From Streptococcus mitis B6 (GTDB lineage Bacteria; Bacillota; Bacilli; Lactobacillales; Streptococcaceae): a stretch of DNA of 64,000 nt. Every line of letters begins with the position of its first letter. The first letter of the stretch is position 1. Shown here piece by piece: positions 26,395-48,070 of this stretch. The notes below the pieces were generated by a model. The model searched no databases. It had not been told where the DNA came from and saw nothing but the letters and a program-made list of their open reading frames with translations. The stretch covers positions 744,001-808,000 of the forward strand of contig NC_013853.1 of the NCBI RefSeq assembly GCF_000027165.1. Reading direction: 5' to 3'. Position numbers and translations under genes: made by a program.

Positions 26395-28906
<2,512 letters not shown>

Positions 28907-41820: not shown

Positions 41821-42035
41821 ATGGCAGAATTTACATTTGAAATTGAAGAGCACCTGTTGACTCTTTCTGAAAACGAAAAAGGTTGGACCAAGGAGATCAA
41901 CCGTGTAGCTTTAATGGTGCTCCTGCAAAGTTTGATATTCGTGCTTGGAGCCCAGATCATACTAAAATGGGCAAAGGGATTACTCTTTCCAATGAAGAAT
42001 TTCAAACAATGGTGGATGCCTTTAAAGGTAACTAA
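41821..42035 (+). pseudogene. frameshifted YdbC/PC4-like DNA-binding protein gene
   Basis: The N-terminal frame (MAEFTFEIEEHLLTLSENEK, GWTKEINRV) is the opening of the streptococcal YdbC-like protein, a PC4-fold single-strand-binding family. After codon 29 the matching sequence continues in another frame: NGAPAKFDIRAWSPDHTKMG, then KGITLSNEEFQTMVDAFKGN and stop at 42033-42035. One base is missing around GTAGCTTTAATGG (41909-41921). In the original frame translation runs to 42048 with an unrelated basic tail. The ribosome binding site (AAAGGAGAAG) is intact, so the loss is recent or a sequencing error. Confidence 0.85.
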
Positions 42036-42088
42036 GTTTTCAAAATGAAAGAAAAGGATATTGAGTTATGACAACTCGATATCCTTTT

Positions 42089-42625
42089 TTAGTTAGCAAA
42101 GTAAGCTTGATTTTTAAGTCGTTGAAGTAGGGGACGACTAATAAAACTAATAGCCAGAAGTTTACCAAGGTCTGGAATGATAAAGGGAATGACCCCCACA
42201 ACAAGAGCTTTTTCAAATGCCATTCCAGCAAGAAAATGTAAGCTGAGAATCCCGCCGACAAAGACAAGGGCATCACCCAAGAGGTTTGCAAGAAAAATCT
42301 TGACAATACCACTCTTGCTGTTGGTTAGAGAGGAAGTCAGTCCAGAGTAAACGAGATAAAACCAAAGATAGCCTGCAGTGGGGCCAACTAAGGCTTGAAA
42401 ACCAGCTCCACCTCCTGCAAAGACAGGAAGACCGATAGCACCTAGAAGAAGATAGAGTCCAACAGAAAGTACAGCCTCTCTCGGTCTGAAGACAGTAGCA
42501 ATCAAGCCGATTGCAAAGTTTTGCAGAGTGAAGGGGACGGGTCCAATTGGAAGACTGATTTGTGCCAAAACAGCAATGAGAGCAGCCCCAATAGCAGGGG
42601 TAGCATAAACGTGAGCTTTTTTCAA
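42089..42625 (-). CDS. bioY: biotin ECF transporter substrate-binding S component
   Basis: A 178-aa membrane protein with about six helices and the BioY pattern: AQISLPIGPVPFTLQNFAIG, RPREAVLSVGLYLLLGAIGLP and GPTAGYLWF. It captures biotin for uptake with the EcfAA'T module encoded elsewhere. The start is a TTG at 42625 with AGAGG 9 nt upstream. Promoter and a candidate BirA-type operator lie directly before it. Biotin must be imported because no biotin biosynthesis genes are seen here. Confidence 0.94.
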   Translation of the reverse strand: MKKAHVYATPAIGAALIAVLAQISLPIGPVPFTLQNFAIGLIATVFRPREAVLSVGLYLLLGAIGLPVFAGGGAGFQALVGPTAGYLWFYLVYSGLTSSLTNSKSGIVKIFLANLLGDALVFVGGILSLHFLAGMAFEKALVVGVIPFIIPDLGKLLAISFISRPLLQRLKNQAYFAN

Positions 42626-42686: not shown

Positions 42687-42827
42687 CAAATTTTTAAAAA
42701 CAAGGTAACAAAAAACTGTAACGGCCGATTTGATTCACAAGAGAAGTTGGATAATTGTTTTTTATCGATTTGTAAATCGCCTTTATAGATAATCCCATTT
42801 TATCAATAAAAAATATACTATAAATAC

Positions 42828-42856
42828 TTGACAAACTAAAAAATAAGCGCTATAAT
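42828..42856 (+). promoter_or_regulatory. bacteriocin-locus promoter
   Basis: TTGACA (42828-42833), 17-nt spacer and TATAAT (42851-42856): a full consensus promoter. It should start transcription near 42863, giving a leader of about 190 nt before the bacteriocin ATG that contains a 13-codon ORF. Confidence 0.92.
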
Positions 42857-42861
42857 AACAG

Positions 42862-42876
42862 ATGTAAACGGATACA
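42862..42876 (+). promoter_or_regulatory. cre-like site at the bacteriocin transcription start
   Basis: ATGTAAACGGATACA fits the degenerate cre consensus WTGNAANCGNWNNCW at every position, six bases after the -10 box. CcpA bound here would block initiation, tying bacteriocin production to carbon supply. Confidence 0.55.
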
Positions 42877-42911
42877 TTTAGATATGTTCAATTTTAAAAG
42901 GAGGGGTAGTT

Positions 42912-42953
42912 ATGAGATATTTTAACGACTCTAGATACCATAACGGTGATTAA
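42912..42953 (+). CDS. 13-codon leader ORF upstream of the bacteriocin gene
   Basis: ATG at 42912 is preceded by AAAAGGAGGGG, one of the best ribosome binding sites in the window, and is followed by 12 codons (RYFNDSRYHNGD) and TAA. The peptide is polar, not hydrophobic, so it does not resemble a typical secreted pheromone. Between its stop and the bacteriocin ATG lie a perfect 7-bp hairpin (CATATTA 42973-42979 / TAATATG 42983-42989), a GGAGGGAC sequence and a second GGGAC. It could be an attenuation or coupling leader, or a relic of a lost gene. A translated product is not proven. Confidence 0.5.
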   Translation: MRYFNDSRYHNGD

Positions 42954-43052
42954 AACCTAAATATAATCAATTCATATTAAAGTAATATGGAGGGACTAAA
43001 AAGGGACTATTATTTAATCTTCATCAAATATTTAAATTCAAGGAGAAGTAAA

Positions 43053-43392
43053 ATGAAAAAAAAGAATTAGTAAGAAAGCATCTGTTTTTCTAGTTGCAAG
43101 TTTTTTCAGTTTTGGATTTGCTACTGTAGCTAGTGTTGTTAGTGCAACTACAGCACACCCTGCTCCAAGTCCCATTATTGATGTATGGGAATATGGTGTA
43201 AATGATAACTATGGTTATTCGAATTACTTTGTTAGTTCTCCAAATAATATTGGATCAAAATCTTCAGTAACGAATTTTTGGGGAACAGTTAAAGCTCAGG
43301 ATAAAAAAGATTATGGATGGGCATATTCAAGTGCAACAAAATCTTGGAACGATGTTCGCTTAAATGCATATTGGGATTATTATAGATTTTAA
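43053..43392 (+). pseudogene. lactococcin-972-family (streptococcin-like) bacteriocin gene, frame broken by an 8-A tract
   Basis: Frame 43063-43392 encodes a full precursor (about 112 aa if joined to MKK). It has a Sec signal with ISKKASVFLVASFFSFGFA and a cleavage site near VVSA, and a mature part with WEYGVNDNYGYSNY, then SSVTNFWGTVKAQ, GWAYSSATKSW and the ending LNAYWDYYRF. The YSNY, [ST]V.N..G, WA.A and final aromatic-rich end match lactococcin 972. The ATG at 43053 has a good ribosome binding site (AAGGAG), but the run after it has 8 A residues (43056-43063): MKKKN then TAG. Seven A residues would join the frames. Whether this is mutation, phase switch or slippage site is open. Confidence 0.82.
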
Positions 43393-43410: not shown

Positions 43411-43441
43411 AAGAGACCCAATTATAAAATAGGGTCTTTTG
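43411..43441 (+). terminator. hairpin between bacteriocin and transporter genes
   Basis: Arms AAGAGACCC (43411-43419) and GGGTCTTTT (43432-43440), nine pairs with one G-U, and a 12-nt AT loop, ending in T residues. It probably attenuates transcription so that more bacteriocin than transporter mRNA is made. Confidence 0.65.
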
Positions 43442-43458
43442 TAATATGGTAATTGCTT

Positions 43459-45441
43459 ATGAAATTAAAATTATGTATCATTGGATTCTTCTTTTGTTTG
43501 ATTGCTACAATTGGTCTGGTCACTATTAGTGATACCGAAATCCCCATACCTTTACCAATTGATGGTGCTTTTTCTATCCAAGGAAAAAGTAATCTTTCTA
43601 ATAATGAAATATACGAAATGGTTCGTGACTTATCAAAAACGGAAAAGGTTACCATTTACAAGCCAATCGTTCAGAGTTCGGGTCAGTTGAAGTATGTAAA
43701 TTTTGATGATGTAAATAATGAACAATTAAAGTCAGCACCAATAGTAGGGATGTATTACACACTTGGGAAAATGGATGTAGACAGTTTGAAACCACTTACG
43801 ATGACTGGACTACAAACAGTATATATGGCTTATCCTTGGTATATAGGAGGAATATTACAATTTACTGGAACTTTAAGAATACTGTTAATGGGTTCCATTT
43901 ACTTAACTTTATTAGTTGTTTTATTTGTTGTTAGGACGAGGCAGATCAAAGAAGGAGTGATACGACGTTCTTTGGGCTTGCCTGTATACGACCTTAGAAG
44001 AGAGTATGGCATTTCTCTTATTTTTGAACTGATTATGATGGCTTTATTGATGATTTCTTACAGTTCTTTTTTGGGTAATGGTTTCTTCACCTATAGTTCT
44101 AAGTTATTTTTCTCTCTGCTTTTAACGAATTTTATACTATTTCAAATCATTGATCTTATTACTTTTGTTTTATTTTGGTTGACGATTCAGATTGAAAAGC
44201 CCATTGAAATTATCAAAAACAAGGCAAAAAACAAGCTTATTTTTGTCGTATGGCTTGCTATTATTTCGCTTATCATCCTTGTCTCAGGAATTTTTTTACA
44301 AGAAACAAAGAGTAGTCAATCTAGTATTAACATACAGATACAGAATTTAGTACCATGGGACACAGTAAAAGACTGGAGAAGGATTGAATTCCTTGGAATT
44401 GAAAGTAACTCTGCTAAAAATGGAGAAGTTAGTGATTCAGATGGTAAGTATCTACAGATAGTTGCTGCCTTAAAAAACTTAGATTTTTTATATATAGAAC
44501 GATCTTTGGCATATGTTCCAGATTTCATGAAAACTTCGCATGTTATAGAAAATTTTTCTAAACAATTAGAAAATGACGGGATAACGAATCCAGAAATAAA
44601 TAAAGAGTTGATTTATATCAATCAAACAGGTGCTAACTTACAAAATAAAGTGAATGGAACAAACTATCATCTTTTAGATAATAAGATAGCAACCATCTAT
44701 ATTCCTGAGAAGTGGAAAGAAAACCAGAAATCTATTGAGAATACAGTTGTAGCAGAACAATTTATTGGAACAAATTATACAAAAGAACAGCTTGCAGTAC
44801 AAATAATTCCTGATGGGGAAAAAATTTTTTATTTTAATGAGGATGCTGATAATAATCTTAAAATGAAAGATATTTTACCGCTGGCAAATGTAGCAGATAG
44901 CAAAGATAATATAGTTGTTGTGTTAGATACGGACAAAATGATGGAAAATAATAAGTTTTCTTTGGCTAGTAACATACTATATAAATCTCTTTTTAGTCCT
45001 GAAGCGGTAAAAAAAATAAATGAGATGACTGTCCCGTTGAATTTCTCAATGAATCCAGTAGATGTTTACCAAATTGTGAAATTAAAGATCCAATCCTTAG
45101 AGCACCAAATTCTACTATCACAAATCTTGCAGAAGATAATTTACAGTATTGTCTTTATACTCATTTATCAATATGTCCAACTTTTTATTACTCTAAAACA
45201 GAATGAATATGTGAAAAAAATCATTTTGGGTCTGTCAAAAACATATATAGCAATTTCAAGTCTCAAATATTTTATGATGACTATTACAATGGTTATTCTA
45301 TTTACATTTCTTATGACAGGGCAAATAGAGTTGTTATATATTGGAGCGGCTTCTCTGCTAGTTTTGATGTTGTCAATCATAATGAGTTTTAGGAAATTAT
45401 CTGAAAGCTACACTAAAATTTTAAAAGGAGATGAATCATGA
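43459..45441 (+). CDS. bacteriocin-associated integral membrane protein (DUF1430-type, lactococcin-972 group)
   Basis: A 660-aa protein with an N-terminal signal/anchor helix, about three further helices around 130-290, a large extracellular part (about 290-545) and C-terminal helices (about 555-645). This layout, and direct coupling to a small ABC ATPase, match the membrane proteins always found beside lactococcin-972-type genes, thought to give immunity and/or export. The ATG at 43459 was chosen; a TTG at 43453 is possible and neither has a strong ribosome binding site, which, with the upstream hairpin, suggests low expression. It overlaps the ATPase by 4 nt. The frame is intact, unlike the bacteriocin gene. 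Confidence 0.88.
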   Translation: MKLKLCIIGFFFCLIATIGLVTISDTEIPIPLPIDGAFSIQGKSNLSNNEIYEMVRDLSKTEKVTIYKPIVQSSGQLKYVNFDDVNNEQLKSAPIVGMYYTLGKMDVDSLKPLTMTGLQTVYMAYPWYIGGILQFTGTLRILLMGSIYLTLLVVLFVVRTRQIKEGVIRRSLGLPVYDLRREYGISLIFELIMMALLMISYSSFLGNGFFTYSSKLFFSLLLTNFILFQIIDLITFVLFWLTIQIEKPIEIIKNKAKNKLIFVVWLAIISLIILVSGIFLQETKSSQSSINIQIQNLVPWDTVKDWRRIEFLGIESNSAKNGEVSDSDGKYLQIVAALKNLDFLYIERSLAYVPDFMKTSHVIENFSKQLENDGITNPEINKELIYINQTGANLQNKVNGTNYHLLDNKIATIYIPEKWKENQKSIENTVVAEQFIGTNYTKEQLAVQIIPDGEKIFYFNEDADNNLKMKDILPLANVADSKDNIVVVLDTDKMMENNKFSLASNILYKSLFSPEAVKKINEMTVPLNFSMNPVDVYQIVKLKIQSLEHQILLSQILQKIIYSIVFILIYQYVQLFITLKQNEYVKKIILGLSKTYIAISSLKYFMMTITMVILFTFLMTGQIELLYIGAASLLVLMLSIIMSFRKLSESYTKILKGDES

Positions 45442-46061
45442 CAATTGACCTTTTGAACGTTTCAAAGAGTTTCGGCTCAAAGAAGATCTTTACAGACTTA
45501 AATTTAATATTTGAATCTGGAAAAAGCTATGCATTGATTGGAGGTTCTGGCTCCGGTAAAAGTACCCTTCTTAATATTATAGGAAGATTAGAAAAAATTG
45601 ACAGTGGGAATGTTTTAGTTGATAAACAAGATATTTGGAAGATAAAAGAAAGAACTTTTTTTAAAAATACTGTTGGATATGTATTTCAGAATTATTCTTT
45701 AATAGATAACAAAACAGTATATGATAATCTGAGCCTTATCACTAAAGACAAAAAAACAATAACTGACGTACTTGAAAAAGTAGGACTGTCAAGTGACTAT
45801 TTACATCAAAAAATATACGAATTGTCTGGTGGGCAGGCTCAACGTGTAGCTATTGCCAGAATGTTAATGAAACCACGTAAAATTATTTTAGCAGATGAGC
45901 CCACAGGAGCTTTAGATGGTGAGATTGGAAAAGAAATCATTCGTTTGTTATTAAATGAAAAAGATGAAGACAAATATGTTATAATAGCGACGCATGATCC
46001 AGCTGTCTATAACGAAGTTGATGTGATAATTGACATGAAAGATATAGGGTATAATGTATGA
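45438..46061 (+). CDS. ABC transporter ATP-binding protein, bacteriocin (lactococcin-972) group
   Basis: A 207-aa ATPase with Walker A GGSGSGKST (about 36-44), Q-loop FQNYSLID, signature LSGGQAQRVAIARM, Walker B ILADEPTGALD and switch His in IIATHDPAVYN. It lacks its own membrane domain and would work with the DUF1430-type membrane protein, whose stop it overlaps by 4 nt. Such two-gene sets mediate export of, or self-protection against, the bacteriocin. The ribosome binding site AAAGGAG lies within the upstream gene. Confidence 0.92.
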   Translation: MTIDLLNVSKSFGSKKIFTDLNLIFESGKSYALIGGSGSGKSTLLNIIGRLEKIDSGNVLVDKQDIWKIKERTFFKNTVGYVFQNYSLIDNKTVYDNLSLITKDKKTITDVLEKVGLSSDYLHQKIYELSGGQAQRVAIARMLMKPRKIILADEPTGALDGEIGKEIIRLLLNEKDEDKYVIIATHDPAVYNEVDVIIDMKDIGYNV

Positions 46062-46558
46062 AAAAGATAATTTATATTGCTTTGATCTTTGTAGCTGGGT
46101 TACTTGCCTTCTTCTTTTTTGGAAAACAAATGATTACAAAAGAAAATACCATTAAACCAACGGTGGAGTTAACAGTCTATACGCTTTCTTCTAGTGATAC
46201 AGAAAAATGGAATAAAGTGAAACAAGTAGAAACGGAAGAAGCTACATACTTCATAACTGTGAAAGAAGCAGAGTCTTCTGAAGAAGTATTTTCAAACATC
46301 ATTGCAAATGGAGCTGCTACGGGGTTCGGAGTTCGTGAAGAAGAAGTGAAGAAATTCAATAATGGTTTAGGAGACACCATAGAGGACTCTAAGCATAATA
46401 AACTAATTGAAATAGAATTTTTTACTTTTTCTGATGATGGCGAGGGATTTGTGGTAGCAAACTTTGACTACGGTAAAGAAGAGTTGAATTCTCAGAAAAA
46501 AGATATAAAAGAGTTATATAAAAAAATATATGAATCTTTTAAAGAAAAGAATAAATGA
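46058..46558 (+). CDS. membrane-anchored extracytoplasmic protein, fourth gene of bacteriocin locus
   Basis: A 166-aa protein with one N-terminal membrane helix (about 4-20, YIALIFVAGLLAFFFFG) and an outward acidic/basic domain with no Cys. The start overlaps the ATPase stop by 4 nt, so it is co-translated. I do not recognise a family. Three-gene sets are usual for streptococcin loci, so this one is an extra. Anchoring outside the membrane, where lactococcin 972 acts (lipid II), makes an immunity role attractive, but that is inference. Confidence 0.75.
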   Translation: MKKIIYIALIFVAGLLAFFFFGKQMITKENTIKPTVELTVYTLSSSDTEKWNKVKQVETEEATYFITVKEAESSEEVFSNIIANGAATGFGVREEEVKKFNNGLGDTIEDSKHNKLIEIEFFTFSDDGEGFVVANFDYGKEELNSQKKDIKELYKKIYESFKEKNK

Positions 46559-46723: not shown

Positions 46724-48070
46724 TTAACGCATGGTTACAAATTCTTCAGATGCAGTTGGGTGAATCGCCACAGTTGCATCAAAGTCAGCCTTGGTTGCTC
46801 CCATTTTGATAGCAACGGCAAATCCTTGAATCATTTCATCAACACCGTATCCAATTCCATGAAGTCCGACAACTTTTTCTTCTGAACCAGCTGTGATCAA
46901 TTTGAAACGTGTTTCTTGACGGTTGTAAGTGCAAGCAGAGTACATAGAAGTAAAGCTTGATTTGTAAACCTTGATTTGGTCTTGACCGTATTCTTTAATA
47001 GCTTGTTCTTCTGTCAAACCAACAGTTCCGATAGCAGGGTGTGAAAAGACAACAGTTGGAATAGTTGAGTAGTCCATTTTTGCAGTAGTTTTTCCGTTAA
47101 AGAGACGTTCAGATAGGGTACGCCCAGCCTTGATTGCAACTGGAGTCAGTTCTTTTTCACCTGTTACATCACCTAGAGCGTAGATTCCTTCAACAACAGT
47201 ATTTTGGTATTCATCCACTTGGATAAAGCCACGTTCGTTCAGGGTTACTCCAGCTTTTTCAAGTTGCAATCCCTTAACGTTTGGACGGCGACCAGTAGCC
47301 CAGATAACTTGGCTAGCTGTGTGACTGGTACCATCTTCGAAATGAATAGTAATGCCTTCAGCAGTTTTCTCTAATTTGACAGGGACTTTGTGAGTATGAA
47401 GGGGTAAGTTGGTTCTTTCCATTTCCTTGACCAAACCTTCAACGATGTAAGAGTCAAAACTACGTAAAGGACGATCGCGGCGAACAAAGAGGTCTGTCTT
47501 GACACCAAAAGTGTGGAGCACGCCAGCCAATTCAACGGCGATATAACCAGCGCCTAGAATAGCAGCTGACTCTGGCAATTCTTCCCAGGCAAATACATCA
47601 TCAGAAGAGCCACCTAGCTCAGCACCAGGAATGTTTGGAATACTTGGATGAGCACCAGTAGCAATCACGATATGTTTAGCACGAATGAGTTCACCATTTA
47701 CGCTGACAGTATGAGAATCTACAAATTCAGCATGACCTTCAATCAAGTCTACACCGTTACGTTTAAAACTGCCATCATAAGAAGAACGAGCGCGATCAAT
47801 GTAGGCTTCACGATTGCGACGTAGGGTCGCAAAGTCAAAGTTAAGATTAGTAGTCTTAAAGCCGTAGTCTTCTCCAAATTGATGGAAAGTCTCAGCGATT
47901 TGCGCCCCGTACCACATGATTTTTTTCGGAACACAACCGACGTTGACGCAAGTTCCACCTAGTTTCTTTTCCTCAATAACGGCCGCTTTGGCTCCGTGTT
48001 CACCAGCACGGTTCATGGTAGCAATTCCTCCACTACCTCCACCGATAGCAATGATATCGTATTCTCTCAT
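46724..48070 (-). CDS. gor: glutathione-disulfide reductase
   Basis: A 448-aa FAD/NADPH disulfide reductase. FAD-binding GGGSGG lies at 10-15, the redox pair Cys41/Cys46 in [13 protein letters not shown], the NADPH Rossmann segment [13 protein letters not shown], the second FAD motif near IYALGDVTG, and the C-terminal dimer motif HPTASEEFV, whose His is the acid/base. It regenerates glutathione taken up from the host. The length and active-site order fit Gor rather than lipoamide dehydrogenase, which usually has a longer C-terminus. It faces the MacAB-like genes divergently. Confidence 0.94.

What the first reader, a model, noticed from the sequence alone, without database searches (positions are those of the whole stretch)
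43053..43392. Bacteriocin gene switched off by one extra A in an 8-A tract directly after the start codon
The lactococcin-972-type precursor is complete except for its first codons. The ATG (43053) is followed by eight A residues (43056-43063), giving MKKKN-stop; seven A would give MKK joined to RISKKASV. Promoter, ribosome binding site, transporter genes and the rest of the toxin frame look intact. A homopolymer at the second codon suits slipped-strand phase variation, or transcriptional/translational slippage that makes a fraction of product. The transporter/immunity genes remain open, which would give a cheater (immune non-producer) phenotype when the tract is 8. The family is known; an on/off tract at this place is, to my knowledge, not described.
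Basis: partly seen in the sequence, partly recalled or inferred. Interest (0 to 1): 0.75.

Follow-up and report, generated by a model that had tools for sequence, protein, structure and literature searches.

The report
Start-broken bacteriocin gene, transporter genes kept
In the mouth bacterium Streptococcus mitis B6 a gene for an antibacterial protein is broken right behind its start codon while the neighbouring transporter genes stay whole, and related streptococci have repeatedly lost the same gene at the same spot, so this looks like ordinary loss of a weapon rather than a proven on/off switch.

Summary
In detail: ATG 43053 is followed by eight A and gives MKKKN-stop, while the rest of a lactococcin-972-like toxin frame is open to 43392. 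The genome is S. mitis B6, sequenced by Sanger chemistry at 6-fold coverage. I examined the same cluster in 41 of the 45 permease-bearing genomes among 284 Streptococcus genomes. The toxin is whole in 8 of 41, broken only in its start region in 10, there and elsewhere in 10, only elsewhere in 2, and largely or wholly gone in 11. The permease is open in 38 of 40 and the ATPase in 37 of 39. Toxin loss with transporter retention is thus recurrent, and single-lesion events cluster at the start (8 of 9 by my grouping). Many of these lesions are deletions or substitutions, and some slipped alleles carry further damage: fixed inactivation fits better than phase switching. An immune non-producer role is plausible, already proposed in print for streptococcin loci, and untested here. 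A sequencing error remains possible: another B6-only one-base gap breaks a conserved gene 1.1 kb away.

The parts
42828..42856 (+). sigma-70-type promoter-like pair, 12 of 12, 17-nt spacer
43040..43045 (+). Shine-Dalgarno-like AAGGAG, 7 nt before the ATG
   Evidence: read
43053..43070 (+). start codon, eight-A tract (43056-43063) and premature stop: MKKKN-stop
43063..43392 (+). rest of the lactococcin-972-like toxin frame, open, without a usable start
43412..43441 (+). terminator-like hairpin with a 12-nt loop and a short T run between toxin and permease (read by eye; not listed by the scan, which allows loops of 3-8)
43453..45441 (+). permease (662 aa from TTG; relatives start at the MKLKL methionine), matches no Pfam or NCBIfam family convincingly
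45438..46061 (+). ABC ATPase, best family TIGR03608 (234.9 bits, cut-off 254.85)
46058..46558 (+). small protein of the cluster, conserved with it; no convincing family

Best explanation
This is a streptococcin-like (lactococcin-972-type) cluster between bioY and gor of S. mitis B6. Its toxin has been inactivated by a length change in the A tract that encodes the lysines behind the start codon, while the promoter, permease and ATPase are kept. Shown: the frame break, the open transporter genes, and the recurrence of toxin loss with transporter retention in relatives. Inferred: the strain makes no or almost no toxin; the transporter genes are retained because they protect against neighbours' toxin (immune non-producer); and the start is hit so often because its A-rich, repeat-rich lysine codons mutate easily and because a start lesion stops production without leaving a garbled exported protein.
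For: Toxin whole in 8 of 41 clusters, against permease open in 38 of 40 and ATPase in 37 of 39. Start-region lesion alone in 10 of 41 and with further lesions in 10 of 41; start intact but broken elsewhere in 2 of 41; first two thirds missing in 8 and degraded or absent in 3. By my grouping 8 of 9 distinct single-lesion events lie in about 25 of 360 nt (binomial 5e-9); without the three tract slips 5 of 6 (9e-6). Control, toxins of the family at other places: 51 of 60 have a start with a Shine-Dalgarno-like motif (49 good, 2 weak); 5 of the 9 others are start-region lesions of one toxin type. First PDB hit of an intact relative's model is lactococcin 972, 2lgn. Published proposals of the same kind: PMC6120550 and PMC11921387.
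Against: No expression, activity or immunity data. Events were grouped by hand, and recombination moves this block: B6 has a mitis-type promoter and 5' toxin part on a transporter background about 99% identical to L051. Some start-lesion alleles may still start: L051, L052 and kin have an in-frame TTG 12 codons upstream, L038 an in-frame ATG at codon 5. dN/dS shows no clear relaxation: 0.43-1.24 between seven broken alleles, 0.21-0.76 between four whole ones. A sequencing error cannot be excluded. In PMC11796350 a strain with scbBC but no toxin is inhibited by producers.
Confidence: 0.68

Rival explanations
1. The A tract is a contingency switch: slipped-strand changes turn the toxin on and off within a clone, so that a population holds producers and non-producers.
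For: Tract at the second codon; lengths differ between alleles of this locus; whole and broken alleles both occur among strains named S. mitis and among strains named S. sanguinis (names, states); whole 112-aa versions are common in the protein collection.
Against: No within-strain data. Many off alleles are deletions or substitutions, and slipped alleles L056, L066 and L069 carry further damage. Tracts of seven A behind a start are ordinary in B6: 9 of 11 sites with a GG 7 nt before the ATG start intact genes, 1 looks frameshifted, 1 is no gene.
Confidence: 0.1
2. The eighth A is an error of the B6 record and the toxin frame is really open.
For: Only 6-fold coverage; a second one-base gap seen only in B6 breaks a conserved PC4-like gene at 41906.
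Against: Sanger reads handle a run of eight well (general knowledge); independent assemblies of relatives show start lesions at the same place.
Confidence: 0.14
3. The frame is still used at low level, by slippage of polymerase or ribosome on the A run, or by weak starting at the ATT codon 43066; the break is a damper rather than an off state.
For: A run of eight at the second codon; the downstream frame is undamaged; the ATT is in frame in the window and in several other start-lesion alleles.
Against: The ATT lies 20 nt behind the AAGGAG; L067 has lost its ribosome-binding site altogether; no direct evidence for slippage.
Confidence: 0.08

Closest known systems
Streptococcin B (scbABC / scbBC) of S. 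pneumoniae, PMC11796350 (passages, section 12)
   Same: lactococcin-972-like toxin followed by two transporter/immunity genes; about a quarter of strains keep only the last two
   Different: there the toxin and the ComE site are deleted together and such strains are inhibited by producers; here the promoter is intact and the toxin frame is broken only at the start
Partial streptococcin clusters of pneumococcus, PMC6120550 (passages)
   Same: toxin missing, transporter and immunity genes conserved; the cheater reading is stated there
   Different: scored by gene presence; no start-proximal lesion in the passages I saw
Incomplete streptococcin loci (isca, iscb, iscc, isce, iscq) of S. mitis, PMC11921387 (passages, section 7)
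   Same: same species group; loci without bacteriocin gene but with immunity genes; defensive role proposed
   Different: type of lesion not given in what I saw; I could not match this locus to one of theirs because supplements were not open to me
SilCR of group A streptococcus, PMC2766830 (passages)
   Same: secreted peptide of a bacteriocin-related locus silenced by ATG-to-ATA at its start codon while the rest of the locus stays
   Different: a pheromone, not a lactococcin-972-type protein; a substitution, not a tract
Cutibacterium acnes island indel_25, PMC4746626 (passages)
   Same: only the lactococcin-972-domain gene is deleted in clade II, the rest of the island is kept
   Different: whole-gene deletion in another phylum

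Membership tests
Lactococcin 972 family bacteriocin | score over the curated TIGR01653 cut-off (32.1 bits) or a PF09683 match | tested here: not met
   first intact relative of A1: 22.8 bits; 3 of 4 A1 members match TIGR01653, best E 8.4e-5; no PF09683 match in 4 of 4. The PF09683 genome search rang in no control and says nothing. It is therefore called lactococcin-972-like, not filed as a member by score.
Lactococcin 972 family bacteriocin | beta-sandwich fold of 2lgn | tested here: met
Lactococcin 972 family bacteriocin | followed by a membrane protein and a TIGR03608 ATPase | tested here: inconclusive
   gene order as expected; TIGR03608 is the best of 186 families but below its cut-off (234.9 vs 254.85); the window's permease matches no NCBIfam family
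Lactococcin 972 family bacteriocin | Sec-type signal peptide | tested here: inconclusive
   helix 7-20 followed by a VSA-like site in intact relatives; no signal-peptide program was run
Phase-variable contingency locus | mutable tract whose length decides the frame | tested here: met
   eight A in B6, 4 to 8 A behind an ATG in relatives, with different frames
Phase-variable contingency locus | reversible switching within a clone | not testable with these tools
   no reads or repeated isolates of one strain; several relatives are off by lesions that slippage cannot reverse
Cheater (immune non-producer) bacteriocin locus | toxin lost, transporter/immunity genes kept | tested here: met
   toxin whole in 8 of 41, permease open in 38 of 40, ATPase in 37 of 39
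Cheater (immune non-producer) bacteriocin locus | kept genes confer immunity | not testable with these tools
   needs a killing assay; PMC11796350 says the functions of the B and C genes are unverified in any lactococcin 972 locus

The most novel reading that the evidence does not exclude
The A-rich lysine codons of the signal peptide, directly behind the start codon of lactococcin-972-type toxins, act as a built-in mutable off-switch across streptococci. Populations hold a standing mixture of producers and start-broken, transporter-keeping strains, and broken frames stay open because they are regained by slippage or by recombination of the promoter-start block, which is mosaic here.
Probability: 0.12. 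Interest if true: 0.6.

Novelty: new member of a known kind. Interest (0 to 1): 0.3.

Why it matters
Toxin-less streptococcin loci have been scored by gene presence. This locus shows a class that such surveys can misread: toxin genes that look present, or are annotated from a shifted start, but are silenced in their first codons. If the concentration at the start holds with dense sampling, it says how these bacteria stop making a secreted toxin while keeping the neighbouring genes, and it makes the cheater hypothesis testable by killing assays.

Tried and rejected
Alternative start for the B6 frame: none with ATG, GTG or TTG. Rfam element in the leader: one chance-level match only (E 0.71). 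dN/dS as a test of loss: uninformative on 105 codons. Profile of intact toxins against PDB sequences: no match. Permease fold: model too poor (pLDDT 42), not searched. PF09683 across the own genome: its control was silent. Rows below 2lgn (beta-glucuronidases, 9hkj, 2o5n and others) were taken as common beta arrangements; that is judgement, not a test.

Rows dropped: of 45 genomes with a permease match, four were left out of the 41-cluster count: G002 (54-residue fragment), G010 (E 8.9e-4), G018 and G256 (25% and 23% identity). L028 (contig end) was left out of the transporter counts, L040 (contig end) also from the ATPase count. L049, with several lesions, was left out of the single-lesion count. 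The control set was 60 of the 75 over-cut-off rows (104 rows in all): the first 58 and two of the next four, with G030 and G060 passed over by oversight; lower rows were not fetched. Collecting by toxin profile may favour start lesions over mid-frame breaks; the main locus was collected by permease and does not have that bias. In the control, 2 of 60 have a good start and an internal stop (L146, L149), and four of the nine without a scored start are unclear (L137, L151, L155, L158; L158 has an ATG without a Shine-Dalgarno).

Not in print: the searches (6, 3, 4, 10, 13, 0 and 7 papers, all listed) showed me no title or abstract start about a tract or start lesion in a lactococcin-972-type gene; I opened passages of seven papers only, and the library holds open-licence papers only.

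Full report
What is there. The window is part of a 2,146,611-base single-contig genome, the size given for Streptococcus mitis B6 in PMC2828477 (passages). That strain was sequenced with BigDye chemistry on an ABI 3730 XL to about 6-fold coverage (section 18), not a platform known for homopolymer errors (general knowledge). Between bioY (42089-42625, minus strand) and gor (46724-48070, minus strand), both named from recall, lies a cluster: a toxin gene broken at its start, a permease, an ATPase and a small protein. Of the 39 relatives' stretches fetched have both flanking genes beside the cluster and 24 neither, so the cluster sits at other places in the more distant species.

The break. ATG 43053 is followed by eight A and the frame ends after MKKKN. 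The rest of the precursor, 43063-43392, is open and 92% identical to an intact relative over residues 2-112. A promoter-like pair matches the consensus in 12 of 12 positions and AAGGAG sits 7 nt before the ATG. ATG plus eight A is found 4 times in this genome, once at an intact 345-codon gene. Of 11 sites with GG 7 nt before an ATG plus seven A, 9 start intact genes, 1 looks frameshifted and 1 is no gene. Long A tracts behind starts are therefore normal here and no sign of a switch by themselves.

The survey. A 541-base DNA search hit 59 of 284 Streptococcus genomes and the permease hit 45 of 284, B6 included in both. I examined 41 clusters: the window, 39 fetched stretches and L028. Toxin state: whole in 8 (L034, L035, L037 and L058 with one identical protein, L063, L045, L046 with one N, L048). 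Start-region lesion only in 10 (window, L057, L059, L038, L043, L028, L067, L068, L051, L052). Start-region plus further lesions in 10 (L056, L031, L032, L033, L053, L054, L055, L062, L066, L069). Start intact but broken elsewhere in 2 (L042, L049). First two thirds missing in 8 (L036, L039, L040, L047, L060, L061, L064, L065). Degraded or absent in 3 (L041, L044, L050). Not all start-lesion alleles need be silent: L051, L052 and their kin have an in-frame TTG 12 codons upstream and L038 an in-frame ATG at codon 5. The permease is open in 38 of 40 and the ATPase in 37 of 39. Strain names for 32 loci are.

Concentration at the start. Grouping alleles that share a lesion, single-lesion events number 8 in the start region (eight A in the window; six A in L057; ATA in L059 and L038; six A in L043; changed start codon in L028; deletions in L067 and L068; rewritten start in L051 and L052) and 1 elsewhere (L042). 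With the start region taken as 25 of 360 nt the binomial probability is 5e-9, and 9e-6 for 5 of 6 without the three tract slips. The grouping is mine, the region was chosen after seeing the data, and recombination blurs descent: the window's permease sits beside L051 in the tree while its promoter and 5' toxin part are of the mitis type. As a control, 60 of the 75 over-cut-off toxins of the family at other places were checked: 51 have a start with a Shine-Dalgarno-like motif, 9 do not, and 5 of those 9 (L117, L118, L122, L124, L125) are again start-region lesions, all in one other toxin type with A-rich repeats behind the ATG.

Reading. The common pattern is loss of the toxin with retention of the transporter genes, and the start is the favourite place of loss. 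Slippage on A runs explains part of it; deletions and substitutions at the same place need another cause, perhaps that a start lesion leaves no garbled exported protein. That is inference. Phase variation is not excluded but not favoured: many off alleles cannot revert by slippage, and several slipped alleles have further damage. Strains named S. mitis and strains named S. sanguinis each include whole and broken alleles, as either reading predicts. dN/dS does not separate broken from whole alleles. Whether the kept genes give immunity is unproven. In the one tested relative, streptococcin B, a strain with only scbBC is inhibited by producers (PMC11796350, section 12), though its promoter region is also altered (passages), which is not the case here.

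Doubt about the base itself. Against three relatives covering 25,363 to 33,803 bases of the window, 16 small gaps were B6-specific; two of them, 43062 in the toxin tract and 41906 in a PC4-like gene (PF02229), break a conserved coding frame, a close pair at 27811 and 27846 lies in a frame that stays open, and I did not tie the rest to genes. At 41906, 15 of 15 aligned relatives show one gap against B6; I saw the alignment of four of them. This second singleton could be real or an error, so I leave 0.14 for an error in the record.

Novelty. The cheater reading for toxin-less streptococcin clusters is published (PMC6120550, passages; PMC11921387, section 7). Loss of just the lactococcin-972-domain gene from an island is reported in Cutibacterium acnes (PMC4746626, passages), and start-codon loss in a secreted bacteriocin-locus peptide is known from SilCR (PMC2766830, passages). 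The repeated start-region loss at this locus is the new part. I rate it a new member of a known kind.

Noticed in passing
window 41821-42048, gap at 41906: PC4-like (PF02229) small gene broken by a one-base gap against 15 of 15 aligned relatives. Real lesion or sequencing error.
   Followed up: yes
window 42912-42953: 13-codon leader ORF with a very strong Shine-Dalgarno, present in the mitis-type alleles L001-L010; in L010 two conservative and one silent change. Function unknown.
   Followed up: partly
window 42863-42876: cre-like operator just behind the promoter, suggesting sugar control of the cluster (motif recalled, not tested).
   Followed up: no
window 42987-43070: Leader ORF from ATG 42987 runs in phase into the toxin ATG; two metagenome proteins (P0004, P0012) are fused this way, one of them with another residue in place of the usual start methionine.
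   Followed up: partly
L117, L118, L122, L124, L125: A second lactococcin-972-type toxin in other streptococci with several start-region lesions next to A-rich repeats.
   Followed up: partly
P0026, P0021; permeases P0165, P0166, P0168-P0171 and others: S. pyogenes and S. equi relatives of the toxin are held as 101-aa proteins beginning at codon 12 of the usual frame, hinting at start lesions there too, while the permease is open in many S. pyogenes contigs; no DNA was available.
   Followed up: no
L168 (G000:C1:394857-394876): Another B6 start with ATG plus seven A, signal-peptide-like, whose frame closes after 26 codons with 79 open codons in another frame.
   Followed up: no
window 42817-43110: Promoter and 5' toxin block is of the mitis type on a transporter background about 99% identical to L051: mosaic by recombination.
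   Followed up: yes
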